This document shows, piece by piece, positions 13,544-56,251 of a stretch of DNA of 64,000 bases. The notes under the pieces are model-generated. The model saw nothing but the letters and a program-made list of their open reading frames with translations, was not told the origin of the DNA and did no database searches. Source of the stretch: a virus; the IMG/VR virus record IMGVR_UViG_3300049215_000771, positions 124,001-188,000 of that record. One strand, written 5' to 3'. The position numbers and the translations under genes were made by a program. Position 1 is the first letter of the stretch; the number at the start of each line of letters is the position of its first letter.

Positions 13544-13768
13544 ATGACTACAATGCTTGCAGGTTTCTCGAACCAAAAAATGGCGCAAGATTTGTTGGGT
13601 GTTCTCCAACAAACCTTCCCACAAAATGAATTCGTCCTTGACGGGAACAGCATCGGCATCAAGGCCCATGAAGTCCTTTGTCTCCCCATCAAGAATTTCG
13701 TCCTGGGCTACACCCTGGGAATGCAGAAAGGCATGTCGGTGATGTTGCATGAACCTTCGACCAATTAA
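13544..13768 (+). CDS. Hypothetical protein, 74 aa
   Basis: A small protein with an N-terminal helix and beta-strand-like segments, no motif recognised. Its last 20 bases overlap the arginyl-tRNA synthetase gene, suggesting coupling. Confidence 0.5.
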   Translation: MTTMLAGFSNQKMAQDLLGVLQQTFPQNEFVLDGNSIGIKAHEVLCLPIKNFVLGYTLGMQKGMSVMLHEPSTN

Positions 13769-15044
13769 CCCGGCTCACGGTGTCGGCTTCTACTCGATGG
13801 AACAACTGCCGCAGTTTGCTGGCAAGTACGTTGAGAAGAACGTGGGCCGCTATTGGAATTATCTTTTCACACCCACCAACTACGATTGGCCCGAACCGTG
13901 GCTGGAAGTGGCGAAAGATCATATCAACGCCGAGTACATCATTGACGGTTTTAGCCCAAACCTCAACAAATCCCTTCATGTTGGGCATCTACGCCAGCTT
14001 GCCCTCGCAAAAAGCCTGTCGGCTATCTTTCGCAAGGCGAAGTTTGTGGCCTTCCTTGGCGCAAGCCTGGGTGTCTACAGCTATGCCATGAAGGAACTCA
14101 ACGAGTGGTTTGAGTTTGTTGGTTATAAGCCGGAACTCTACTACGACGTGCTGATGCCCCGTGACCTGGTGGAACATCACAAAGTCATCGAACACGAAGC
14201 CCATGTGTGGGATGGTCCCAATGGGCCGGTGATCGTTGTTCGCAGCGATGGTCGCCCTACCTACGCCTTCCACGATCTTGCCTTTGCCAAGATGGTCGGC
14301 CCCACTCATTACATCACTGGAGCCGAGCAGAAGGAACATTTCGAGCGCCTGGGCCTGGGTGACAAGCATCTCATCATGGGGCTTGTGCTGGGCAAAGATG
14401 GCAAGAAGATGAAGTCTCGTGAGAGTGATCTTGAAGATGCCAAGGCTGCTGCTGTCATGGATGAAATCATCAGCAAGCTGGACGATTCCTGTACCGAGAA
14501 GAAGAAATTGGCCTGGAACATCCTGGCCTGGAACTTTCTCGTGGCCGGTCGCCAGCAAAACGTCAAGTACAACCTGGAGGAATGGACCAACCCGGATCAG
14601 GCTGGCCTCTACATCACCTACACCTATGCCCGTGTTCGCAAGGCGTTGAAGGGCATTGAGTGGGCGCACATTCCTCCCGCCAACATGAAAGCCATCAAGA
14701 AGCACTTCCAGTGGGATGGGCTGGGCGCAGAACATTGGGATGAGGCGTGTGAGAAGTGGTCCCCAACCGACCCGGACCCGCAGTACGATCTCACCCAGGC
14801 TGATGTTGACCTGTTGGGTTTCTCGGAATACTACCGCTACTATCTGAAGCGTTGCACCGACACAATGGACCCGACGCATATGGCCAACTACGCCCACGAC
14901 CTGGCACGTCGCCTGGGCAAAGCCTACCACGCCGAGAAGATTCAGGGCGGTCGCTACGGGTTCCAATACGCTATGGAGCGAGCGAAAAGTATGCTTCGCC
15001 AGTGCATGTGGTATTTGGGCATGTTCGATTTGGAGCAGGTTTAA
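13749..15044 (+). CDS. argS-like: Arginyl-tRNA synthetase-like protein, shortened
   Basis: The class I signature HVGHLR sits in SPNLNKSLHVGHLR near residues 66-79, as in bacterial ArgRS. The THYITGAEQKEHF segment follows, then the KMSKS-equivalent GKDGKKMKSRES, and the YTYARVRKAL element that opens the anticodon-binding domain. ArgRS charges tRNA-Arg with arginine. At 431 residues it is well short of the usual 550 or more: only about 60 residues precede the catalytic core, so the N-terminal tRNA-binding domain is missing, and the C-terminal domain is compact. It may charge a modified tRNA set or act without the D-loop contact. Confidence 0.9.
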   Translation: MNLRPINPAHGVGFYSMEQLPQFAGKYVEKNVGRYWNYLFTPTNYDWPEPWLEVAKDHINAEYIIDGFSPNLNKSLHVGHLRQLALAKSLSAIFRKAKFVAFLGASLGVYSYAMKELNEWFEFVGYKPELYYDVLMPRDLVEHHKVIEHEAHVWDGPNGPVIVVRSDGRPTYAFHDLAFAKMVGPTHYITGAEQKEHFERLGLGDKHLIMGLVLGKDGKKMKSRESDLEDAKAAAVMDEIISKLDDSCTEKKKLAWNILAWNFLVAGRQQNVKYNLEEWTNPDQAGLYITYTYARVRKALKGIEWAHIPPANMKAIKKHFQWDGLGAEHWDEACEKWSPTDPDPQYDLTQADVDLLGFSEYYRYYLKRCTDTMDPTHMANYAHDLARRLGKAYHAEKIQGGRYGFQYAMERAKSMLRQCMWYLGMFDLEQV

Positions 15045-29122: not shown

Positions 29123-29971
29123 ATGAGCAGGATCAAGCAAACGAGCGACGTAATCGGCAACGCCATGAGGGAGGGGACTCCCCCGTGGCGTATGCCGTTT
29201 GTTGCCCACAAAAACAGCGGATTCCCCACCAACGCCTATACAAACCGGCAATATGGTGGTATAAATCCATTACTGCTCAATATCGCCGCCCTCAAGAATG
29301 GACACACCAGCAAGTATTGGGCGACGTACAAGCAGTGGGCCGGCATGGGCTGCCAGGTCAAGCGCCGTCCCGACGACGTGCCAGAAGGCGAATGGGCTGC
29401 CAAGATTGTCCGCCGAACCTACAACGAGGAAGATGACAAGGTTTCGTGGTCGCCGATCTTGGTTTTCAACGCCTCCCAGGTGTTTGGAAATTTCCATGTC
29501 GTTCCGGCGACGGCGTACCAGGTGTTGAAGGCAGAGATTTCCGACACCCCACCTGACTATAGTAACACGGATCGTTTGCTGGCCCAGGCGGTTTTCAAGG
29601 AAGGTGGCTACAGCAGGCCACGCTACGAGCGCCCGCCCAAAGACTTCATCTGTATGCCTTGGCGGAAGCGGTTTGTTGATGATGCTCACTGGTATGGTTC
29701 GTGTCTGCATGAGCTAATCCATTGGGCTGAATGGCGCACGGGATGGAAAGGCAGTGAAGAACAAGGCGAATTGATCGCTGAGATCGGCCAGGCGTATCTG
29801 GAAACACTTCTCGGCGTGCCGCATTGCAACGACTTGACCAACTACAACAAATGGTTGGACGACTGGCTCCGGGCGATGGACGAAGACCCACGATACATCT
29901 ACGAAGCCACCGCACAGGCCGAAAAAGCAGTCGATTTTGTCATGGGTCGTCGCCCCAACCGTGACGAATAG
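29123..29971 (+). CDS. ardC-like: ArdC-like antirestriction protein with zincin domain
   Basis: The N-terminal half matches the ArdC/DUF1738 domain: GTPPWRMPFVAHK, NAYTNRQYGGINPLLL, YWATYKQWAGMGCQVK and PILVFNASQVFG. The C-terminal half is a metallopeptidase-like domain with HELIHW at 196-201 (HExxH zinc site) and a downstream ELIAEIG glutamate. ArdC proteins bind single-stranded DNA and protect incoming DNA from restriction. The 282 residues fit the family. Confidence 0.85.
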   Translation: MSRIKQTSDVIGNAMREGTPPWRMPFVAHKNSGFPTNAYTNRQYGGINPLLLNIAALKNGHTSKYWATYKQWAGMGCQVKRRPDDVPEGEWAAKIVRRTYNEEDDKVSWSPILVFNASQVFGNFHVVPATAYQVLKAEISDTPPDYSNTDRLLAQAVFKEGGYSRPRYERPPKDFICMPWRKRFVDDAHWYGSCLHELIHWAEWRTGWKGSEEQGELIAEIGQAYLETLLGVPHCNDLTNYNKWLDDWLRAMDEDPRYIYEATAQAEKAVDFVMGRRPNRDE

Positions 29972-37649: not shown

Positions 37650-37866
37650 AACATTAAAACAATACGCCATTTACGACCATCCCAAGGATCACCCCCATTT
37701 CTTTGTGGTGCGTGAATGGATCATTGGACCTGGTACTTGCACGCCTGGTCCAATGATTGCGCTGTGTGATACGCTTGAACAAGCACGTCGCAAAGTCCCG
37801 GAAGGATATTCATGTTTGCCTCGTTTCACCGAGGATGACCCGGTGATTGTGGAAGTTTGGATATAG
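37642..37866 (+). CDS. Hypothetical protein, 74 aa
   Basis: GTG 37642 overlaps the previous stop region. A small protein with strand-like N-terminus (YAIYDHPKDHPHFFVVREW). No family recognised. Confidence 0.5.
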   Translation: MNKTLKQYAIYDHPKDHPHFFVVREWIIGPGTCTPGPMIALCDTLEQARRKVPEGYSCLPRFTEDDPVIVEVWI

Positions 37867-37876
37867 GAGAGCTACC

Positions 37877-38140
37877 ATGAAAGTTTCAAAGGATTTGATC
37901 TGGCCCAGGGTGCTGAGGATCATGGAGGAAGGACTCGGTATCGACGAAGTGAACATGCACGGGGACATGACTCAAAATGGCATGGATTCTCTCGACGTGA
38001 TTGACTTGCAGTTTCGGGTCGAGAGGGAATTTGGCGTCACTATTCCCGATGAGGCCATGATGGAAATGAGGACGCCTGCCGATCTGGTGGACTGGCTGGA
38101 GAAATCTGAAAAAAAATCACCGGATTACTTTACAAATTAG
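37877..38140 (+). CDS. acpP-like: Acyl carrier protein-like
   Basis: AGGAGA precedes ATG 37877. The 87-residue helical protein has NGMDSLDVIDLQFRVEREFG, then VTIPDE: the Asp-Ser-Leu site that receives 4'-phosphopantetheine, in the usual second-helix context. Acyl carrier proteins hold growing acyl chains as thioesters. It is the last gene of the operon headed by coaD. No acyl enzyme or phosphopantetheinyl transferase is visible, so host enzymes would be needed. Confidence 0.85.
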   Translation: MKVSKDLIWPRVLRIMEEGLGIDEVNMHGDMTQNGMDSLDVIDLQFRVEREFGVTIPDEAMMEMRTPADLVDWLEKSEKKSPDYFTN

Positions 38141-41220: not shown

Positions 41221-41233
41221 CCAATCACTTTCA

Positions 41234-41259
41234 GAAGGCAGCATCTCGCTGCCTTCTTT
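41234..41259 (+). terminator. Terminator
   Basis: GAAGGCAGC and GCTGCCTTC form a 9-pair stem around ATCTC, then TTTA. Confidence 0.75.
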
Positions 41260-41261
41260 AC

Positions 41262-41290
41262 TTTACAGCCTCAAAGAAACGTGGTATCAT
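41262..41290 (+). promoter_or_regulatory. Sigma70-like promoter of the NADAR operon, site 8
   Basis: TTTACA at 41262-41267, 17 bases ending AACGTGG, TATCAT at 41285-41290, 20 bases before ATG 41311. Confidence 0.75.
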
Positions 41291-41310: not shown

Positions 41311-41814
41311 ATGCCCGTGTCGTTTACGAAAGTGAAGCTGCCTTTTGGCTGGCTCGGCAATATGGCCGGGTTCAAGCTGGAGTACGGCGGCAAGGAATGG
41401 CGCACTTCCGAGGCTCTTTTTCAAGCTCTTCGATTCGCTGATGAGGCGATCCGTGAGGAGATTCGCCTTGCAATCTCGCCCATGACGGCTAAGATGATTG
41501 CCAAGAAGCACGCCGATAAAATGGCGATTACGCCTATGTCGGCTGGCGATGTGGCGATCATGGAGCTAGTGCTTCGTCTCAAGCTGGATCAACACCCGCA
41601 CCTGAAGGCTGAACTCCTGGCAACTGGCGATGAAGTCATCATTGAAGATGTTACTAATCGTCCGAGCGGAGGTCGCCATATTTTTTGGGGGATGTCCAAA
41701 GCGTCTGGCGAGTGGGTCGGAGACAACACGCTGGGCAAACTGTGGATGAAAATAAGGAAGGAGTTGCAAGATGGAATCCGGTCTGATACTGGTTCCTCAG
41801 CCGGCGCAGTATAG
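41311..41814 (+). CDS. NADAR-family ADP-ribose glycosidase-like protein
   Basis: The YbiA/NADAR pattern is present through the protein: FGWLGNMAGFKL, EWRTSEALFQALRF, IREEI, KLDQHPHLKAELLATGD, then HIFWGM and GDNTLGKLWMKIRKEL. NADAR enzymes cleave N-glycosidic bonds of ADP-ribose derivatives; some remove ADP-ribose from guanine in DNA and oppose DarT-type toxins. The 167 residues fit the family. It is the first gene of an operon that later holds a macrodomain protein. Confidence 0.85.
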   Translation: MPVSFTKVKLPFGWLGNMAGFKLEYGGKEWRTSEALFQALRFADEAIREEIRLAISPMTAKMIAKKHADKMAITPMSAGDVAIMELVLRLKLDQHPHLKAELLATGDEVIIEDVTNRPSGGRHIFWGMSKASGEWVGDNTLGKLWMKIRKELQDGIRSDTGSSAGAV

Positions 41815-42322
41815 GACTGTGTTCCTGGGGACGAAGCGACGCAGGCTTTTCTTTCCGCACAGCCTTTTCGCCATTCATTACATCAAGGGGGCGGGTCGGC
41901 GATACACTATGCAGCGCCTCCAGGTTGCCTTCTCGCAACAGCCGATTACCGGCAAGAACGATAAGGCTAAGTTGTACGGAATCCCTCTCAGCAATGCGGA
42001 CGGTGGATTCAACATCTGCCTTTATACCGGAGCAGAAGCCGACAGCCTGAAGGAATTGGCCCGTGAAGCGATCAAGGTTTACTGGTCCACTTCCTTCCAG
42101 AAGTGCTACGACGACTACTACTATTGGGTTCGCCGGTATACCAGGTCCGGCGTGGCGAAGAAGTGGTACGCCGATCCAGAATTCATCATGACCGCTGAGT
42201 TGCGACAGGCCGATTACATCATGGATGTCGGCAAATTGAAGTCTGCGGTCAGGGCCAAGGTCACAGTAATACCAAGCGTGACTGAGAAGGTCAAGTTGAA
42301 GCTACCCAAGGTCAAGAAGTGA
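41771..42322 (+). CDS. Hypothetical protein, paralogue A, 183 aa
   Basis: AAGGAG precedes ATG 41771 inside the NADAR gene (44-base overlap). It shares a block with the gene at 42615: FFPHSLFAIHYI, LQVAFSQQPI, KNDKAKLYGIPLSNADGG and ICLY. The block faintly recalls the PRTRC/E2-like family D pattern, not enough to assign. The C-terminus is basic. Confidence 0.6.
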   Translation: MESGLILVPQPAQYRTVFLGTKRRRLFFPHSLFAIHYIKGAGRRYTMQRLQVAFSQQPITGKNDKAKLYGIPLSNADGGFNICLYTGAEADSLKELAREAIKVYWSTSFQKCYDDYYYWVRRYTRSGVAKKWYADPEFIMTAELRQADYIMDVGKLKSAVRAKVTVIPSVTEKVKLKLPKVKK

Positions 42323-42612
42323 AAGTTCACATAATTCAACTTCTGTGCCCTCAACGCCATGCGATCTTTGCTGTCGCTTACGAACACCCTGACTTGAGCG
42401 ACGAAGATGGCATGAAATCGGCTGAGGCAACATGGAAGTTGATGTTGGAATCGGGGTTCAATCCCTGGTGTGCGTTGTGTGATAGCAGGGAGTTGAAGTT
42501 TGAGATAGGGATCAGTAAGTTTGTCACGATGAAGGAAGCGTTCCCTCATCTGAAGCAAACCGAAATCGACAACATGCGGACCCGAATGCGTCTTCTGGCA
42601 GAGAGGAACTAG
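42319..42612 (+). CDS. Hypothetical protein, 97 aa
   Basis: GTGA overlap. Contains a CALC pair after a helical stretch; between the two paralogues. No family recognised. Confidence 0.5.
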   Translation: MKVHIIQLLCPQRHAIFAVAYEHPDLSDEDGMKSAEATWKLMLESGFNPWCALCDSRELKFEIGISKFVTMKEAFPHLKQTEIDNMRTRMRLLAERN

Positions 42613-42614
42613 CA

Positions 42615-43352
42615 ATGGGCGGACTTCGTTCCAATTTCCAACACCACGGCAAGGTCATTGCCTCCACGCCGCCGCAGGTGCGGACAATCTTCTGGAATGG
42701 CAACAGCAGGGGAGAGCAGTTCATCTTCCCGCACACACTGTTCGTGGCGTACTACACCCGCAATGAAGGCGGGCATAAAGCCAAATACTGGCTCAACCGG
42801 CTGCATGTCGGTTTCAGCCTCAATCCCATCGACCTGAAGAACGATCAGCAGCCCATTTACGGGTTGCCGCTCGCCAACACCGATGTCGGAAACGCCATCT
42901 GTTTCTACCAGTGGCCGGTCAGCGAAGACCCCCTGGACTTCATGAAACAGGTGATCTCGCAATACTGGCTCTCTCCGTTCACCGACTACGGAGACAGCTT
43001 CTCGCACTGGCTCAACACCTACAACGTCACTTCCGACAGGGTGAGTCGTCCCGGCACTTTCCGGGAAGACTGGAAGCGGGCTACGGCCCGTCGTGACTGG
43101 CAGTGGTTGTGGAAACAGAACCTCTACCAAGCACCCTACTGCGTCAACCTGCGTCAGACGTTGCTTTCCAACAAGACGCAAACGGACGAGACGGATTGGT
43201 TCCCGAACCTGGGCGTGCCAGTGCCGAGGGAACTGATCCAACGGCTCGCCGAGCAGAAGTGGAACGAGGCCGGCTGTCCCGATGGCGACGACAATCGTTT
43301 TTGGCTCGCTGCCGAGAAGGAGTTGAAAGAACAACTCCACGCCTTCAAATGA
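42615..43352 (+). CDS. Hypothetical protein, paralogue B, 245 aa
   Basis: It shares with the gene at 41771 the run FIFPHTLFVAYYT, LHVGFSLNPI, KNDQQPIYGLPLANTDVG and ICFY. It has an additional C-terminal region of about 100 residues that is Trp-rich and charged. The pair probably arose by duplication with one gene between. Function unknown. Confidence 0.6.
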   Translation: MGGLRSNFQHHGKVIASTPPQVRTIFWNGNSRGEQFIFPHTLFVAYYTRNEGGHKAKYWLNRLHVGFSLNPIDLKNDQQPIYGLPLANTDVGNAICFYQWPVSEDPLDFMKQVISQYWLSPFTDYGDSFSHWLNTYNVTSDRVSRPGTFREDWKRATARRDWQWLWKQNLYQAPYCVNLRQTLLSNKTQTDETDWFPNLGVPVPRELIQRLAEQKWNEAGCPDGDDNRFWLAAEKELKEQLHAFK

Positions 43353-43359
43353 GGGTCCA

Positions 43360-43686
43360 ATGAAAACCAAAGTCCCGGATGATGTTGTCCACCTGGAACT
43401 GTATGCCTGGGTGGGCGAGGATGAACATGGGTCTGGCAAGATCGGTCTGAAGCAGGCTGTTGTGCCGGCTGGTTGTGTGCCCCTGGTCGCTGTTGATGAT
43501 TTCAAGATCGACCAGGAATACGTCAAGCAAGCGTTGCAACATCAAGCCAACGTGTACGGCAAAACCATCAGGCTGTGCCGGTTCGTTTTCGTCCAGGAGT
43601 TGGTGAAGATCGACCCGGAACCACCTGAGAAAAATCCGTTTGCCCCCAAAGAGCCGGCTCATGAAGACGCAGATGAGCGTTCTTGA
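43360..43686 (+). CDS. Hypothetical protein, 108 aa
   Basis: A beta-rich N-terminal domain and a Pro/acidic tail (DPEPPEKNPFAPKEP). No family recognised. The next gene overlaps its end. Confidence 0.55.
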   Translation: MKTKVPDDVVHLELYAWVGEDEHGSGKIGLKQAVVPAGCVPLVAVDDFKIDQEYVKQALQHQANVYGKTIRLCRFVFVQELVKIDPEPPEKNPFAPKEPAHEDADERS

Positions 43687-43855
43687 ATCCATCAACCTCG
43701 CCGTCGAGCAACAATTGTTGGATCGCAACAAGGAAGTTGTCGAGTATGTGCAAACCCATCGGTACAAAGACACCGATGGGTTTGCCGTCAATGATGTGGT
43801 ATTTTACGAGGAAAGTGACGACTGGTTCGACAACCTCATCTGGCAAAGGGAGTGA
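43673..43855 (+). CDS. Small hypothetical protein, 60 aa
   Basis: ATG 43673 or 43661; overlaps the previous gene. A helix followed by an acidic aromatic-rich end. No family recognised. Confidence 0.5.
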   Translation: MSVLESINLAVEQQLLDRNKEVVEYVQTHRYKDTDGFAVNDVVFYEESDDWFDNLIWQRE

Positions 43856-43857
43856 AC

Positions 43858-44217
43858 ATGCTTCGTGAACCTGTTACCGGCGAGATCGAGCGAGAAGCAC
43901 AAACTCTCGCCAATAGCGACCCGGAGGGTGTTCGTCAAAAAATCATCAGGGCCAGGGCTGATGAAATTATCGCTCAACGTAAAGCCCTGGGTCTGCAAGC
44001 CATCGCCAAGATCGAAACTTACCAAAAGAACCTGGCCGGCATCAAACAAGCTGCCATGTTCGATGCTGACGGTAAGCCCATCGTCGTCGGTTTCACCGAG
44101 GGGCAGAACGCCCAGCGACAACAACTGAAAGACAACATCAGCAAACTCGAAGATGCTCTCCGGGAGGCTTTCGGCGAGAAGGCAAACTGGAAAGCCCTCG
44201 AAGACGCTATGGCGTGA
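43858..44217 (+). CDS. Helical hypothetical protein, 119 aa
   Basis: GGGAG lies 5 bases before ATG 43858. Strongly helical with Gln/Lys-rich coiled-coil character. No family recognised. Confidence 0.6.
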   Translation: MLREPVTGEIEREAQTLANSDPEGVRQKIIRARADEIIAQRKALGLQAIAKIETYQKNLAGIKQAAMFDADGKPIVVGFTEGQNAQRQQLKDNISKLEDALREAFGEKANWKALEDAMA

Positions 44218-44225
44218 GGCGCACG

Positions 44226-44828
44226 ATGATCGTCACACTTGTCCGCATCAAAGATAACTTCTCCCCTTATGGGGGCCAGAAATATGGCAAATCCCCTGTG
44301 GGCGAGGTTGGCTATTTGATTGATGGGTTTGGGCGATTGTCGGGCCATCTGATGAGTCAGAATGGTGAAGTCGCCATCGAAACCTTCAAGTTGGATGGCG
44401 CTATCGGCGCAACCTACTACCACGTTCCCGCAACCTGCATCGAGATCGTGCAAGACCGGGACTGGTACAGTGCATTCGAGCGATATTATGACAAGCATCC
44501 CTACATCGAGATCAACTGTGAGTTTGTGGTCAACGATCCGATGTTTGGCGTGTGGTTGCATGTCGGCAAGCCAGGCAGTGGTGGTTGGCTGAACTACAAA
44601 CATCGTCTGCTGGGGTCGGAAGACGTGAAAGACCCCAACGATCTCGTCAAGTATTGGGAGACAGTGTGCAATCGCTTCGGCGGCACCCTGTTGTTGGTTG
44701 ATCCCTACGTTCAGGCGTTGTGTCTGGACTTTGACGAAGGCGACAAGAAGTTCACTCATTACCATACCATGTGGGCCAAAAATGTCCACAAGGCAATGGA
44801 GCAGAATCGTGCCACGAAGCCGCAATGA
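44226..44828 (+). CDS. Hypothetical protein, 200 aa
   Basis: GAGG lies 6 bases before ATG 44226. A soluble alpha/beta protein with a Gly-rich N-terminus and many aromatic residues. No family recognised. Confidence 0.55.
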   Translation: MIVTLVRIKDNFSPYGGQKYGKSPVGEVGYLIDGFGRLSGHLMSQNGEVAIETFKLDGAIGATYYHVPATCIEIVQDRDWYSAFERYYDKHPYIEINCEFVVNDPMFGVWLHVGKPGSGGWLNYKHRLLGSEDVKDPNDLVKYWETVCNRFGGTLLLVDPYVQALCLDFDEGDKKFTHYHTMWAKNVHKAMEQNRATKPQ

Positions 44829-44849
44829 CCTGGGCAAACAGAGAACCAT

Positions 44850-45155
44850 ATGAAGGAACCACTGAGCAACATCGGGATGGTGTGTCCTGAACACTCGGCC
44901 AAACCCGATCCGCAATACTTCGAGAAACCCTATTGTTGGTTTTTCGGCAAGAACTGCAAACTGCGGTTCCCCACCGGCCTGCCTGAAGGGAAGCCGCAAT
45001 ATGAAGCCATGTGGGTTTATGTGCAAGGAATCCGGGAGATCGACGGCACAACCTGGTTGGTTGGCGTTTTGAACAACGATCCCATCATCGTGACCGAATA
45101 CAAGGATGGCGATGGTGTGGCATTTGAGCGAAATGAGATTTGTGCTGTATCATGA
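44850..45155 (+). CDS. Hypothetical protein, 101 aa
   Basis: The ATG follows a weak ribosome site. Several Cys residues (C-P-E-H, C-W-F, NCKLR) in the first half, strands in the second. ATGA overlap with the DUF3050 gene. Confidence 0.5.
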   Translation: MKEPLSNIGMVCPEHSAKPDPQYFEKPYCWFFGKNCKLRFPTGLPEGKPQYEAMWVYVQGIREIDGTTWLVGVLNNDPIIVTEYKDGDGVAFERNEICAVS

Positions 45156-45916
45156 AACTGACACTCTCGAACATGCTGGGTGAAGAAGGCAAACGTCTGG
45201 ATGCAGCGCTGGCATCCAAGGGCGATAGTCCCGTGTTGCGTGGCCTTGGCACGCCGGAAAACACGCTTCGCTTCATGAAGGCGTGCTTGCGTGGATCGTA
45301 CTTGTTTGGGCGACATCTGGTGCCTTCCTACGTTGCTCACGCATTCACCTGGCTGACCACACAAGGTCCGGTCGATGACAACATGGGGCCAGTGCTTCGC
45401 AAGGTCGTCGAGTTGTGCATTGGAGAACTTTGCACCAACAACATTTACAACAGGGATTGGCAATGCCACGCCCACTGGCACGATCTGTGGGAGGCATATG
45501 TTGAAACTGCTGGGGATGTAGCGTGCAACGAGTTTGCCAAATTCAACAACGATGCCCACGGTTACAGCACCATTTGTGCCATCGAGAACAATCGCAACCT
45601 GTGGAGTCCTGGGTCTGCTCGCTATGCCGGTCAGTTGTTGATTTGTTGTGATGATCCGTTGGCAACATTTATTGTCATGACATGCAATGAAATGTTGACA
45701 ACCATCATCTATCCCGTCGCCCTCAAATATCTTTGCACTGATGCAAAGTTTGACAAGTTCCGTCGCTTCTTGGAAGTTCATGTTCAACTCGATGGCGACG
45801 ACCACGGCTATGCTGCGCTGGAATGGCTGGAGTTGTACCTGCTGAAGAAGCATTTGCCAGAACAGCGTGTACAATCCGCTACCTCGATGGTACGGGCGCT
45901 CTACGAAAGGGACTGA
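45152..45916 (+). CDS. DUF3050-like (haem-oxygenase fold) protein, 254 aa
   Basis: Helical protein; the C-terminal part FLEVHVQLDGDDHGYAALEW and its RALYERD end match the DUF3050 pattern. That family has a haem-oxygenase-like helical fold, and some related families are di-iron oxidases. It would be cytoplasmic. No substrate can be inferred. It precedes a methyltransferase-like gene by 1 base. Confidence 0.65.
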   Translation: MKLTLSNMLGEEGKRLDAALASKGDSPVLRGLGTPENTLRFMKACLRGSYLFGRHLVPSYVAHAFTWLTTQGPVDDNMGPVLRKVVELCIGELCTNNIYNRDWQCHAHWHDLWEAYVETAGDVACNEFAKFNNDAHGYSTICAIENNRNLWSPGSARYAGQLLICCDDPLATFIVMTCNEMLTTIIYPVALKYLCTDAKFDKFRRFLEVHVQLDGDDHGYAALEWLELYLLKKHLPEQRVQSATSMVRALYERD

Positions 45917-45917
45917 C

Positions 45918-46568
45918 ATGAAAGCCTGGTTGCTGCCCAACGCCGACGTGAGCTACCTCGACGACATCCTTCTTGACGACAAAGGTTTGCTGAAGGTTTT
46001 GCCACACTCGATCTACACCAAGATCGACCTGGCCCATTTGCAAGCCTGGGCCGGCAAGAAGGGCGTGTATACATTTCCCACCACGGAACTGATCGACTGG
46101 ATTCATCAGCGCATCGCCGGGCGCAAGGCTATCGAAATTTGTGCCGGTATGGGTGTGATCGGTCGTGCCCTCAAAATCATCACCACAGATTCCTACAACC
46201 AGTGTATGCCTGAAATGAAGGCATATTACAAGGCGCTGGGACAGGAATGCACCGACCCGCCCGCTGACGTGTATCAATTCGAGGCCAATGAAGCTGTCAA
46301 TACGCTCAAGCCCAAGGTCGTAGTTGCTTCTTACGCCACACAGAAATACCAGCCTGGTGATGAGGGACCGCCACCCATTGGGTCTTCGGTGTATGGTGTG
46401 GATGAATTGGAGATGTTGCCGAAAATCCAAACCTATATCTTCATCGGCAGCGATATGAGCCACGGCGATAAGCGGATTCTCAAATTCCCACACGAGACAA
46501 TTCGGGAGCCGTGGATCGTCACACGAGGGTTGTACCAGGAGCAAAATTTCATCAAAGTTTGGGGTTGA
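45918..46568 (+). CDS. Methyltransferase-like protein, 216 aa
   Basis: The segment KAIEICAGMGVIGRALK resembles motif I of class I SAM methyltransferases, followed by ITTDSYNQ at the motif II position and VVVASYA at motif IV. The motif IV catalytic tetrad is not clear, so it may be a degenerate or small-molecule enzyme. Confidence 0.55.
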   Translation: MKAWLLPNADVSYLDDILLDDKGLLKVLPHSIYTKIDLAHLQAWAGKKGVYTFPTTELIDWIHQRIAGRKAIEICAGMGVIGRALKIITTDSYNQCMPEMKAYYKALGQECTDPPADVYQFEANEAVNTLKPKVVVASYATQKYQPGDEGPPPIGSSVYGVDELEMLPKIQTYIFIGSDMSHGDKRILKFPHETIREPWIVTRGLYQEQNFIKVWG

Positions 46569-46620
46569 TGTCATGGGAGAAATCCCTTACGCTGGGTCAT
46601 CGTCCTTAAAGGAGGAAGGT

Positions 46621-46830
46621 ATGAGAATGAACCCGCTTGCTGAGATCGCCCAACACCTGACCGAGCAAGAATTCGGCACAGGAGTCTACAAAGAAGGTTG
46701 GCATCAAGGCGATGATCCCCTTCTTCCGAGGCGATGGACGACCATTGCCTGTTCCCAATGTGGCAACCAAGTGTACTTCGACAAGGTGATGTACCGCCAC
46801 CGATGTTGTGAGTGTGGGCATGGATTCTGA
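46621..46830 (+). CDS. Small zinc-ribbon protein, 69 aa
   Basis: ATG 46621 has a perfect AAAGGAGG site; the longer frame from 46573 lacks one. CSQC and CCEC pairs near the C-terminus form a zinc ribbon. It immediately precedes the ART-like gene. Confidence 0.6.
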   Translation: MRMNPLAEIAQHLTEQEFGTGVYKEGWHQGDDPLLPRRWTTIACSQCGNQVYFDKVMYRHRCCECGHGF

Positions 46831-46842
46831 TAGGAGAGTGAC

Positions 46843-47523
46843 ATGGGCTGGTGGGGATATGGACTTTTTTCTGGAGACTCGCCCGCTGATTTCATCGGGA
46901 ACACCGAACACTGGTTCCGGCAGCAGATCGAAGAAGCGATGAAGGATGGCTGGAGGTTCGAGGACGTTCCAGCCATCATCTACCTCTACGCCGATTTCTG
47001 CCGGCGCTTTGGCTACCGCAGCAAGGATATGAACAAGTACGTCGAATGGCTCCGGGCCTACGACGCAAGCAAGAATGGCTGGAAAAGCGAGAAAGAACGC
47101 CAGGAAGCCATTGTTCGCCTTGGCAATGAACTCGAACAACTCTTCACCATGAAGGAGAAGGAAGGCTACAGACTCGATCCCAGCGAATACCCACGAGTCA
47201 ACGGCCTGTCTGGTGTCGAGGTTTACCATCTCACCAGGCGGGAGAACGTCACCAACATTCAGAAGGAAGGGTTGTTGCCCAAGAAGTGTTATGCGGGCTG
47301 GGCTGGTGAGAACAAGGAAGGTGTGTTCGTGTCCCGCTCAATGCTGGGTTGTTTGAAGTGGCAGCATCATGTTCTTGGGCACACTTTGATTGGTGAGCCG
47401 GCCATTGTGAAGTTTGCCATCAACGACGAGGATGAAGTCTACCAGGACCAGCGGGTTGACTTCCGTGACGACTTGATTGTTTGTAATCGCATCCGGCCTG
47501 GACGTTGTTGGATTCTGTCATGA
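46843..47523 (+). CDS. ADP-ribosyltransferase-like protein, DUF4259-like N-terminus
   Basis: Residues 1-100 open with MGWWGYGLFSGDSPADFI, like DUF4259 proteins, and stay helical. Residues 125-226 look like an ADP-ribosyltransferase or RNA 2'-phosphotransferase core: VYHLTRRENVTNIQKEGLLP (H129), GVFVSRS, then PAIVKFAI and a final strand. The catalytic Glu cannot be placed. It is translationally coupled, through one small gene, to a DarG-like macrodomain gene, a toxin-antitoxin-like order. Confidence 0.5.
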   Translation: MGWWGYGLFSGDSPADFIGNTEHWFRQQIEEAMKDGWRFEDVPAIIYLYADFCRRFGYRSKDMNKYVEWLRAYDASKNGWKSEKERQEAIVRLGNELEQLFTMKEKEGYRLDPSEYPRVNGLSGVEVYHLTRRENVTNIQKEGLLPKKCYAGWAGENKEGVFVSRSMLGCLKWQHHVLGHTLIGEPAIVKFAINDEDEVYQDQRVDFRDDLIVCNRIRPGRCWILS

Positions 47524-47762
47524 ACGAAGAAAAATACTGCGTTTATGCCAAATGGGGTGGGCTGTTTGGACTGTTCTTCCCCTGGGTTCTCATTGGCATC
47601 AGTGATGAAAATGTCGGCTTCGATGCCGGCTATGGCCCCGATGCTTACTACATGGGCTACAAGCTGATGTTGGTGAAGATGGAGATTCCGCTGGTGCGTG
47701 AGTTCTTCTTCGTTCCCAAGAAGGCGAAAGTAATCGGGCCTGTGATTCAGAGGTCGCAATGA
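47520..47762 (+). CDS. Small hypothetical protein, 80 aa
   Basis: ATGA overlaps at both ends join it to the ART-like and macrodomain genes. It has a hydrophobic segment (LFGLFFPWVLIGI) and strands. Possibly an accessory or membrane-linked partner of the module. Confidence 0.55.
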   Translation: MNEEKYCVYAKWGGLFGLFFPWVLIGISDENVGFDAGYGPDAYYMGYKLMLVKMEIPLVREFFFVPKKAKVIGPVIQRSQ

Positions 47763-48205
47763 TCGAATACGTCCAACAACAGAACGTCCTCGATTCCGAC
47801 TGTGAGGCTATTGTCAACACAGTTAATTGCTACGGCAAGATGGGCAAAGGGCTGGCTTTGTTGTACAAACGCAAGTTCCCTCAGATGTTCCTTGCCTACA
47901 AACGTGCTTGCGACGAAGGCAAGGTAAAAACGGGAACGATGCACTTGTGGAAGAATCCCAATGGCGGTTGGGTCATTAACTTCCCAACGAAAGATCACTG
48001 GCGCAATCCATCACAAATGGAATGGATCGTTCTCGGCCTCCAGAACCTTGTTGAAGTCATCAAGGACAAAGACATCAAATCTATCGCCATTCCACCACTC
48101 GGCTGTGGCCTGGGTGGGCTGGAATGGTACAGGGTGCGTGGCGAGATCAAACGAGTCCACGACCATCATTGGAAAGACATCAGGGTGGTGGTGTACGAGC
48201 CATGA
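47759..48205 (+). CDS. DarG/TARG1-type macrodomain protein
   Basis: EAIVNTVNCYGKMGKGLALLYKR covers the ADP-ribose-binding N20, N23 and MGKG loop. AIPPLGCGLGGLEW at about 110-123 is the second binding loop of the DarG/TARG1 branch. The protein is a lone macrodomain (148 residues) without a second domain. DarG macrodomains remove ADP-ribose from thymidine in DNA made by DarT toxins. It overlaps its neighbours by ATGA on both sides. Confidence 0.85.
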   Translation: MIEYVQQQNVLDSDCEAIVNTVNCYGKMGKGLALLYKRKFPQMFLAYKRACDEGKVKTGTMHLWKNPNGGWVINFPTKDHWRNPSQMEWIVLGLQNLVEVIKDKDIKSIAIPPLGCGLGGLEWYRVRGEIKRVHDHHWKDIRVVVYEP

Positions 48206-48591
48206 CTATCGAAGACCTGGCTGCCGAATTTACCCCAATGCCGAAGGGATTTCGGACTATCGGCGACAACGAAGTTGTGGTGAAGGGCGATATGTGTTGT
48301 TTGGTAGGTCAAGGCAATCAATGGACTGTCATCGACTCTCAGGAATGCTTGGGCATGACTGGCGAGGCGGCGAAGAAAAAATGGGCGAATTATATGTTCG
48401 CTACACCACGCCAGTCGCCAATCTTCAACACACGCATTCTGCCTCCCGACAAAATTGAAGAACTCTGCGACCCCTGGCCCGAAGTCCATGAGAGCTACTA
48501 TGGAGTAGAGATTAGCAGGGGCGAGGCGGCTATTCTCTACTACGACGCAGAAAAAAGACAACTGAAAATCGAGATTTTGGTGTCATACTGA
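48202..48591 (+). CDS. Hypothetical protein, 129 aa
   Basis: ATGA overlap with the macrodomain gene. A mixed alpha/beta protein with three Cys, no family recognised. TGATG overlap with the next gene. Confidence 0.55.
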   Translation: MTIEDLAAEFTPMPKGFRTIGDNEVVVKGDMCCLVGQGNQWTVIDSQECLGMTGEAAKKKWANYMFATPRQSPIFNTRILPPDKIEELCDPWPEVHESYYGVEISRGEAAILYYDAEKRQLKIEILVSY

Positions 48592-48905
48592 TGCTTCCTG
48601 ATTGGGCTAAAGAGTCACTGTTGACAAAGCCAGTCAAGCCTGGGCCAATCCCAACAGTTCTCCCTTCAACCTACAGGTTGTTGGGAAATAACGAAGAAAT
48701 CCAGCCTGGCGATCTTTCGTACTGCTGGAATGAGAAGCACACAGAAACAGCCTGGTATCCCGTTTTCAACGAGATTTATTTTGGTGAAACCGTGGAGGTC
48801 ATGAATCGCTATCGTGGCGTGGTGTTTTTCTTTGCCCGCTACGACCCGTTCAAGATCACGCCTATTTTGAGCAGGCAAGTCATTGAGTCCTTGCTTGACA
48901 AGTGA
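48591..48905 (+). CDS. Hypothetical protein, 104 aa
   Basis: TGATG start. A Pro-rich N-terminus and a beta-rich, aromatic-rich core. Last gene of the NADAR-macrodomain operon. Confidence 0.55.
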   Translation: MLPDWAKESLLTKPVKPGPIPTVLPSTYRLLGNNEEIQPGDLSYCWNEKHTETAWYPVFNEIYFGETVEVMNRYRGVVFFFARYDPFKITPILSRQVIESLLDK

Positions 48906-48906
48906 C

Positions 48907-48935
48907 TTTACATCCAGACTCACTCGTGGTACTAT
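48907..48935 (+). promoter_or_regulatory. Sigma70-like promoter, site 9
   Basis: TTTACA at 48907-48912, 17 bases ending CTCGTGG, TACTAT at 48930-48935, 21 bases before ATG 48957. Confidence 0.75.
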
Positions 48936-55650: not shown

Positions 55651-55813
55651 AGATGTTCCCAACGTCTACCGTGACGTGTGCCTGGCGCTGCTTGAGTCGC
55701 TGGGACCGGGAGGCATGAAGAAGGCGATTTGTGATTTGGCTCAGTTGTATAAGCAGGACGTGCCAGAAATCAAACTGCCCGGCTGGGAGAAGGACGACGA
55801 GATTCCGTTCTAG
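55535..55813 (+). CDS. Hypothetical protein, 92 aa
   Basis: ATG 55535 starts inside the previous gene. A basic N-terminus and helical core (FLDDLVKRAAQSPEDVPNVY) with an acidic end. No family recognised. Confidence 0.55.
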   Translation: MGKPKVIQSRWKLKKSPDPKPIVARFLDDLVKRAAQSPEDVPNVYRDVCLALLESLGPGGMKKAICDLAQLYKQDVPEIKLPGWEKDDEIPF

Positions 55814-55842
55814 TTTACAAATCGCCCCACCTGTGGTATTAT
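55814..55842 (+). promoter_or_regulatory. Sigma70-like promoter, site 10
   Basis: TTTACA at 55814-55819, 17 bases ending CTGTGG, TATTAT at 55837-55842, 19 bases before ATG 55862. Confidence 0.75.
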
Positions 55843-55861
55843 CCGAGCAACGGAGACGAAC

Positions 55862-56251
55862 ATGGTTATGCCTGAGTTTCTGGAAGAAGCCTTGTTGAAG
55901 ACCCTGGCCGACCGGATGAAGGTTCAGGCCCACGAACACCCTTGCGACCCTCGACAGGTTGCTGCGGCAATGATGGAAGGAAAAATTCTTCCCTTCCCCG
56001 ACAACCTGAAGGGATTCATCGTCCTGGATGACGTGAAACATCAACTTCAGTTCAGCCATGATAGGCTTTCGGAAGGCAAGACGCTGATTCATCTTTCGTG
56101 TGCCAGGGAAGATCAGGCAGCAGTGACCGATAGCGTGAAGAACAAGCTAATTGCTGCGTTTTTTGGTGGCGAAGAAACTTTCGAGTTCCCTGGCAACGAA
56201 ATGATCGCCAGGCAATACGTCACACATATTGCTGCACTTAGGGTGGAGTAG
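55862..56251 (+). CDS. Hypothetical protein, 129 aa
   Basis: The first gene after the promoter. An N-terminal helix, then alternating strands, and a helix with FFGGEETFEFPG. No family recognised. Confidence 0.55.
   Translation: MVMPEFLEEALLKTLADRMKVQAHEHPCDPRQVAAAMMEGKILPFPDNLKGFIVLDDVKHQLQFSHDRLSEGKTLIHLSCAREDQAAVTDSVKNKLIAAFFGGEETFEFPGNEMIARQYVTHIAALRVE

What the first reader, a model, noticed from the sequence alone, without database searches (positions are those of the whole stretch)
41311..48205. Operon combining a NADAR enzyme, an ART-like protein and a DarG-type macrodomain
NADAR (41311-41814) and the DarG/TARG1-type macrodomain (47759-48205) both remove ADP-ribose: members are known to act on guanine- and thymine-linked ADP-ribose in DNA, the marks of DarT1 and DarT2 toxins. 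Between them, coupled by ATGA overlaps to the macrodomain gene, lies an ART-fold-like protein (46843-47523) plus one 80-residue protein (47520-47762). I infer either a phage-borne DarTG-like ADP-ribosylation module or a two-pronged shield against host DarTG defences. The arrangement ART-small gene-macrodomain with a DUF4259-like N-terminus is not one I know.
Basis: partly seen in the sequence, partly recalled or inferred. Interest (0 to 1): 0.82.

Follow-up and report, generated by a model that had tools for sequence, protein, structure and literature searches.

The report
Phage operon of ADP-ribose enzymes
A very large bacterial virus carries, in one gene string, two enzymes that probably strip the tag ADP-ribose from molecules and one protein with the fold of enzymes that attach it; each kind of part is known from large phages, but I found no description of this combination or of this attaching protein, and it may serve both attack on the host and self-protection.

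Summary
In a 532,729-bp phage record the window encodes a NADAR protein (41311-41814), a divergent protein with a C-terminal ADP-ribosyltransferase (ART) fold (46843-47523), an orphan 80-residue protein (47520-47762) and a stand-alone DarG-type macrodomain (47759-48205). A phage promoter motif before NADAR, the next one only after 48905, and a terminator-like stem upstream suggest one 17-gene transcription unit. The ART reading is now supported: a modelled C-terminal domain matches KptA, DarT1 and other ARTs, and a profile built around it hits KptA (6e-7) and DarT1 (0.0016). It is not a DarTG system: no DarT in the phage, and the macrodomain lacks DarG's DarT-binding part. The DUF4259 claim is not supported. 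The ATGA overlaps are ordinary here (6 of 16 junctions). A related ART sits next to a related NADAR in one other huge phage; ART-macro linkage was seen only here, and a related phage lacks that cassette. Most likely: a phage ART aimed at the host, co-expressed with erasers that remove ADP-ribose from nucleic acid, shielding the phage from host DarT-like defences and perhaps from its own ART. Catalytic activity of the ART is unproven.

The parts
41233..41257 (+). terminator-like stem (10 pairs) with T-tract upstream of the unit
41261..41290 (+). phage promoter motif CTTTACA-N14-TGGTATCAT in front of NADAR
   Evidence: 11 copies of the motif in the window, all +, 0.45 expected
41311..41814 (+). 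NADAR protein (167 aa): likely guanine-ADP-ribose hydrolase; E34 and K61 kept, R41 where E. coli C7 NADAR has K95, E112 at the P. nicotianae E125 position by alignment through YbiA
41771..46830 (+). eleven intervening small genes, mostly orphan, on the same strand with short gaps or overlaps
46843..47523 (+). ART-like protein (226 aa): helical N-terminal part (about 1-110) and ART-fold C-terminal domain (about 120-226); H129, T131, F162, D209/D210 at the motif positions
47520..47762 (+). 80-aa orphan protein, ATGA overlaps on both sides
47759..48205 (+). stand-alone DarG/TARG1-type macrodomain (148 aa), K78 equals DarG K80
48202..48591 (+). orphan protein, 4-bp overlap with the macrodomain gene; weakly similar to the next gene (26%)
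48591..48905 (+). orphan protein, last gene before the next promoter motif
48906..48935 (+). next copy of the promoter motif, marks the likely end of the unit

Best explanation
This is an ADP-ribose write-and-erase cassette of a huge phage. The ART-fold protein is most likely a phage effector that uses NAD+ to put ADP-ribose on a host molecule (inferred). The NADAR and the DarG-type macrodomain, made from the same transcription unit, remove ADP-ribose from nucleic acid, the NADAR from guanine and the macrodomain from thymine or phosphate ends (inferred from their families). They shield phage DNA and RNA from host DarT-like toxins and may also clear stray marks left by the phage's own ART. Shown here by computation: the identities of the two erasers, most of their key residues, the ART fold, the absence of DarT and KptA, a shared promoter arrangement. 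Inferred: substrates, direction of the ART, timing.
For: ART fold: the model of the C-terminal domain (pLDDT 72.5, pTM 0.67) matches KptA (best E 4.7e-5), DarT1 (6e-3), cholera toxin A, RES toxin and PARPs, ART-superfamily proteins taking nearly all of the top 50, and phage proteins named DarT, PARP and KptA. A profile of small YHxT proteins scores the protein 19.5 bits against at most 3.6 in 1000 shuffles, 16.2 without the seed sequences; with it included the profile hits KptA at 6e-7 and DarT1 at 0.0016. Erasers. Shield logic: the phage has 2 NADARs, 2 macrodomains and a PARG-type eraser but no DarT or KptA. In an independent 376-kb phage (L042) a member of the same ART family and an ART-bearing 1008-aa polyprotein lie directly upstream of a NADAR 50% identical to this one. 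Literature: phage ARTs mostly act on host macromolecules, and NADARs of several T4-like phages are early genes together with ARTs (PMC9503650).
Against: No assay. The ART motif is degenerate: Y to F (F162) and E to D (D209/D210), so it may be inactive. Only one other phage shows ART next to NADAR; none of the other family loci examined has an eraser nearby. ART-macro adjacency was found only here, and the relative L056 lacks that cassette. Phage NADAR of T4 hydrolyses guanine-ADP-ribose in vitro but does not rescue from E. coli C7 DarT1 (PMC11125620). Iyer et al. [quoted passage not shown]
Confidence: 0.45

Rival explanations
1. Pure shield: NADAR and macrodomain are counter-defence against host DarTG1 and DarTG2; the ART-like protein is an unrelated or catalytically dead neighbour, for instance a decoy or inhibitor.
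For: Both erasers co-occur without this ART in other huge phages (LR756511.1, macro 52% and NADAR 56% identical, about 374 kb apart; G001). Degenerate motif in the ART. The phage antitoxin mimic AdfB is a precedent for anti-DarT factors (PMC11481870).
Against: An ART family member lies next to NADAR in a second phage; ART fold and His/Thr are kept.
Confidence: 0.23
2. Toxin-antitoxin pair: the ART-like protein is a toxin and the macrodomain (with or without the 80-aa protein) its antitoxin, working like DarTG2.
For: Order ART, small gene, macrodomain with ATGA overlaps. Phage-borne DarTG exists, for example Thermus phage phiMa (PMC11437467). YarT-YbiA shows that non-DarT ARTs can pair with erasers (PMC11125620).
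Against: Overlaps are common in this string. No DarT, no DarG C-terminal domain. The order was not seen in any other genome; ART-type toxin-antitoxin pairs are rare in phages (PMC9503650). The genes lie in a long phage operon, not a free-standing pair.
Confidence: 0.18
3. RNA-end or small-molecule pathway: the ART works like KptA/Tpt1 on RNA ends and the macrodomain or NADAR clears the ADP-ribose products.
For: KptA is the best structural and profile match; macrodomains process ADP-ribose-1''-phosphate (PMC9503650).
Against: No PF01885 match in the phage and no Tpt1 N-terminal lobe recognised in the protein; the closest macrodomains are of DarG type; the sequence match to KptA covers mainly the beta1-helix element.
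Confidence: 0.1

Closest known systems
DarTG2 (DarT2-DarG) toxin-antitoxin system
   Same: Macrodomain of DarG type with catalytic lysine; an ART-fold protein two genes upstream.
   Different: No DarT; macrodomain lacks the C-terminal DarT-binding domain; extra 80-aa gene; inside a long phage operon.
DarTG1 / DarT1-NADAR
   Same: NADAR domain with E34 and K61 kept.
   Different: NADAR is stand-alone; its only PDB match is YbiA; R41 instead of K95; no DarT1.
ART, NADAR and Macro repertoire of large phages (Iyer et al. 2022, PMC9503650)
   Same: Large phages often carry each of these domains; NADARs are expressed with ARTs in several T4-like phages.
   Different: A NADAR, a DarG-type macrodomain and this divergent ART in one transcription unit is not described in the sections read.
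KptA/Tpt1 RNA 2'-phosphotransferase
   Same: Best structural match to the C-terminal domain.
   Different: No KptA profile match, no N-terminal lobe recognised, different motif.
YarT-YbiA (myxobacterial ART toxin with NADAR-type antitoxin, PMC11125620)
   Same: Non-DarT ART coupled with a NADAR-superfamily eraser.
   Different: Bacterial two-gene pair; sequence relation to this ART not tested; here eleven genes separate NADAR and ART.
AcrIF11 (phage ART that modifies Cas8/Csy1, PMC12421852)
   Same: Small phage-encoded ART; its mark can be removed by a macrodomain in lysate.
   Different: Sequence relation not tested; no linked eraser mentioned in the passages read.

Membership tests
NADAR (PF08719) | profile match above curated cut-off | tested here: met
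   71.6 bits, cut-off 35.1
NADAR (PF08719) | catalytic/ligand residues E88, K95, D171/E125 equivalents | tested here: inconclusive
   E34 kept, K95 replaced by R41, E112 aligned to the E125 position through YbiA but with a 6-residue insertion after it
NADAR (PF08719) | removes ADP-ribose from guanine | not testable with these tools
   needs an enzyme assay
DarG-type macrodomain | DarG/TARG1 macrodomain sequence with catalytic lysine K80 | tested here: met
   5m3i 2e-37, 5m31 2e-35; K78 in NFPTK; mapping K78 to K80 assumes a 10-residue offset in 5m31
DarG antitoxin | C-terminal DarT-binding domain | tested here: not met
   protein ends at profile position 145 of 329
DarTG system | DarT (PF14487) next to the antitoxin | tested here: not met
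   no PF14487 match in the 532,729-bp record; the same search rings in 10 of the 22 contigs fetched through their macrodomain
ART superfamily | ART fold | tested here: met
   Foldseek best hits KptA, DarT1, cholera toxin A, PARP; medium-confidence model
ART superfamily | H-Y-[EDQ] or H-H-h catalytic motif | tested here: inconclusive
   H129 kept; second position F162 (Y or H in relatives); third D209/D210 (E in most relatives)
KptA/Tpt1 (PF01885) | profile match | tested here: not met
   no match in the phage nor in the Pfam scan
DUF4259 (PF14078) | profile match | tested here: not met
   no match at E up to 10
Toxin-antitoxin pair | toxicity relieved by the partner | not testable with these tools
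   needs expression in E. coli
YarT or AcrIF11 | sequence or structural homology to these ARTs | not tested
   sequences not compared; neither appeared among the top 50 PDB fold matches listed

The most novel reading that the evidence does not exclude
A phage-encoded reversible ADP-ribosylation module in which one divergent KptA/DarT-like ART with its own helical N-terminal part is made together with two chemically different erasers, NADAR for guanine and a DarG-type macrodomain for thymine or phosphate ends, so that the phage can mark host nucleic acid while keeping its own clean.
Probability: 0.18. Interest if true: 0.78.

Novelty: new variant of a known kind. Interest (0 to 1): 0.5.

Why it matters
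Host defences such as DarTG block phages by ADP-ribosylating phage DNA. A huge phage with five ADP-ribose erasers and a divergent ART, three of these genes in one likely unit, would be a clear case for testing whether phages both use and undo this chemistry. It also links an undescribed family of small YHxT proteins on plasmids and phages to the ART fold.

Tried and rejected
Direct homologue searches of the ART-like protein in viral contigs, genome contigs, phages, plasmids and PDB found nothing usable; only a weak plasmid hit (E about 1) opened the family. A single-sequence model failed (pLDDT 46.7). The N-terminal MG-WG-YG-F pattern in viral contigs gave only an unrelated internal match. DUF4259 rejected. 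KptA membership rejected. The Persicobacter plasmid hit is a chance match. A last scan for L042-type ARTs found only itself. Searches for a paper on NADAR-type anti-DarT factors of phages found none in the library beyond those cited.
Full report
WHAT IS THERE. The window is bases 124001-188000 of a 532,729-bp virus record. The NADAR and the macrodomain are secure: PF08719 71.6 bits and PF01661 74.3 bits, both far above their cut-offs. The macrodomain is of DarG type: PADLOC DarG 219 bits, covering profile positions 1-145 of 329, and the closest solved structures are the DarG macrodomains 5m3i and 5m31, with human TARG1 far behind. Its lysine K78 in NFPTK aligns with the DarG catalytic lysine K80 (PMC11543638; the numbering assumes a 10-residue tag in 5m31). 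The protein ends where DarG's DarT-binding domain would begin.

THE ART-LIKE PROTEIN. By itself it is an orphan: no usable Pfam, PHROG or PDB match and no tblastn match in phages or plasmids at normal thresholds. A weak tblastn hit of its last 113 residues to Pseudomonas plasmid proteins (E about 1) led to a family of about 110-residue proteins on plasmids and in Bacillus phages, with invariant H-x-T, G-L, F and W. A profile of that family gives the window protein 19.5 bits over residues 125-219, against a best of 3.6 bits in 1000 shuffles; it is also the best of 373 window reading frames (19.5 against 5.0). Because the first members were chosen by resemblance to the query, I rebuilt the profile without them: 16.2 bits against 3.5. 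The family profile hits RNA 2'-phosphotransferase KptA (8e-4) and DarT1 (0.12) in the PDB; with viral members and the window protein included, KptA 6e-7 and DarT1 0.0016. The match covers mainly the first strand and helix.

STRUCTURE. A model of residues 103-226 from a ten-sequence alignment has pLDDT 72.5 and pTM 0.67, compared with pLDDT 46.7 for the whole protein without an alignment. Foldseek against the PDB gives KptA/Tpt1 first (E 4.7e-5), then DarT1, cholera toxin A, RES toxin and PARPs; against viral models it gives phage proteins named DarT, PARP or KptA and many unnamed ones. TM-scores are modest (about 0.45-0.56 by query length for the best PDB hits), as may be expected for a small divergent domain. 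I take the ART fold as supported. The catalytic motif is uncertain: H129 is kept, the second position is F162 where relatives have Y or H, and the third is D209/D210 where most relatives have E.

TRANSCRIPTION UNIT. A motif CTTTACA-N14-TGnTAnnAT occurs 11 times in the window with up to two mismatches, all on the + strand, against 0.45 expected; several copies are followed by a ribosome-binding site and start codon. One copy is at 41261 directly before NADAR, the next at 48906, and none lies between. A 10-pair terminator-like stem ends 3 bases before the first. This suggests one unit of 17 genes, from NADAR to 48905. Internal promoters are not excluded.

WHOLE PHAGE AND RELATIVES. The record has a second NADAR (55682-56125), a second macrodomain (523771-524190) and, beside it, a PARG-type eraser (524815-525138), but no DarT and no KptA. 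The closest named relatives of both NADAR (56%) and macrodomain (52%) lie in the 595-kb phage LR756511.1, about 374 kb apart, with no convincing ART of this family (best 0.042). The 368-kb phage G001 has this NADAR type next to a Nudix gene, and two macrodomains. Macrodomains similar to this one occur in at least 275 phage records. A 340-kb relative sharing the SNF2 helicase (57%) and two other genes lacks the ART, the 80-aa gene and the macrodomain at that place, and no ART or macrodomain was found elsewhere in it, so this cassette is accessory.

RECURRENCE. When all fetched loci were scanned with the ART-family profile, an unexpected 80-bit hit appeared in a 376-kb phage that had been fetched through its NADAR. 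There a 118-aa ART-family gene starts inside the end of a gene for a 1008-aa protein with a sub-threshold ART-PolyVal match, and the NADAR follows 62 bases later. So ART-family and NADAR genes are neighbours in that phage and share a likely unit in this one. I found no other such case in the remaining family loci, and no second case of this ART family beside a macrodomain.

MECHANISM. NADARs, including phage T4's, hydrolyse guanine-linked ADP-ribose in vitro, though YbiA and T4-type NADARs did not rescue cells from E. coli C7 DarT1 (PMC11125620). In E. coli C7 NADAR the K95R change keeps activity in vitro but loses rescue (PMC11543638); this NADAR has R41 there, which argues for an active enzyme that may not be a good DarT1 antitoxin. 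DarG macrodomains hydrolyse thymine-ADP-ribose (PMC11543638). Phage ARTs mostly act on host macromolecules, and NADARs of several T4-like phages are early genes alongside ARTs (PMC9503650). The simplest reading that uses all parts is an ART effector aimed at the host, made with erasers that keep phage nucleic acid clean. The main rivals are a pure shield with an inert ART, a toxin-antitoxin pair, and a KptA-like RNA-end pathway.

COMPARISON. It is not a DarTG system by two tested features (no DarT; no DarT-binding domain). It works like parts of both DarTG1 and DarTG2. Phage-borne DarTG is already known (Thermus phage phiMa; PMC11437467), as are phage anti-DarT factors (AdfB, PMC11481870). The new element is the combination and the divergent ART. 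I rate it a new variant of a known kind.

LIMITS. No experiment; one medium-confidence model; homology of the ART rests on remote matches; host unknown; co-expression is inferred from motifs; collections are incomplete, so absence of the ART-macro order elsewhere is weak evidence.

Noticed in passing
G000:C1:523771-525138 (L053, outside the window): Second macrodomain (227 aa) followed by a gene with a microbial-type PARG domain (PF10021, 60.7 bits): more ADP-ribose erasers in the same phage.
   Followed up: partly
G000:C1:55682-56125 (L034, outside the window): A second, more typical NADAR (186 bits), unlike the window's NADAR subtype.
   Followed up: partly
window 11027, 20017, 25151, 29236, 33772, 33968, 38128, 41261, 48906, 55813, 58994 (+): Repeated promoter-like motif CTTTACAnCC...CGTGGTAnnAT, 11 copies on one strand against 0.45 expected; probably a class of promoter of this phage and useful for cutting the genome into units.
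   Followed up: partly
L042:4559-8459: In another huge phage a 1008-aa protein with a weak ART-PolyVal match and a YHVT element near its end, a 118-aa ART-like gene overlapping it, and a NADAR follow one another.
   Followed up: partly
L059-L091 (plasmids, Bacillus phages, viral contigs): Family of about 110-residue YHxT-GLxP-IGxRS-VYxF-NWLG-YE proteins without a Pfam model, related by profile to KptA/DarT; on several Pseudomonas plasmids it lies next to an integrase gene.
   Followed up: partly
window 41771-42322 and 42615-43352: Two paralogous genes (33% identical) in the unit; the second ends in a DUF2934 domain.
   Followed up: no
window 13749-15044: Protein with above-cut-off matches to class I arginyl-tRNA synthetase and (barely) DALR anticodon-binding domains.
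   Followed up: no
window 37847-38140: Small protein that looks by eye like an acyl carrier protein (GMDSLD motif); not searched.
   Followed up: no
window 29123-29971: Match to a PHROG of anti-restriction proteins (117.6 bits).
   Followed up: no
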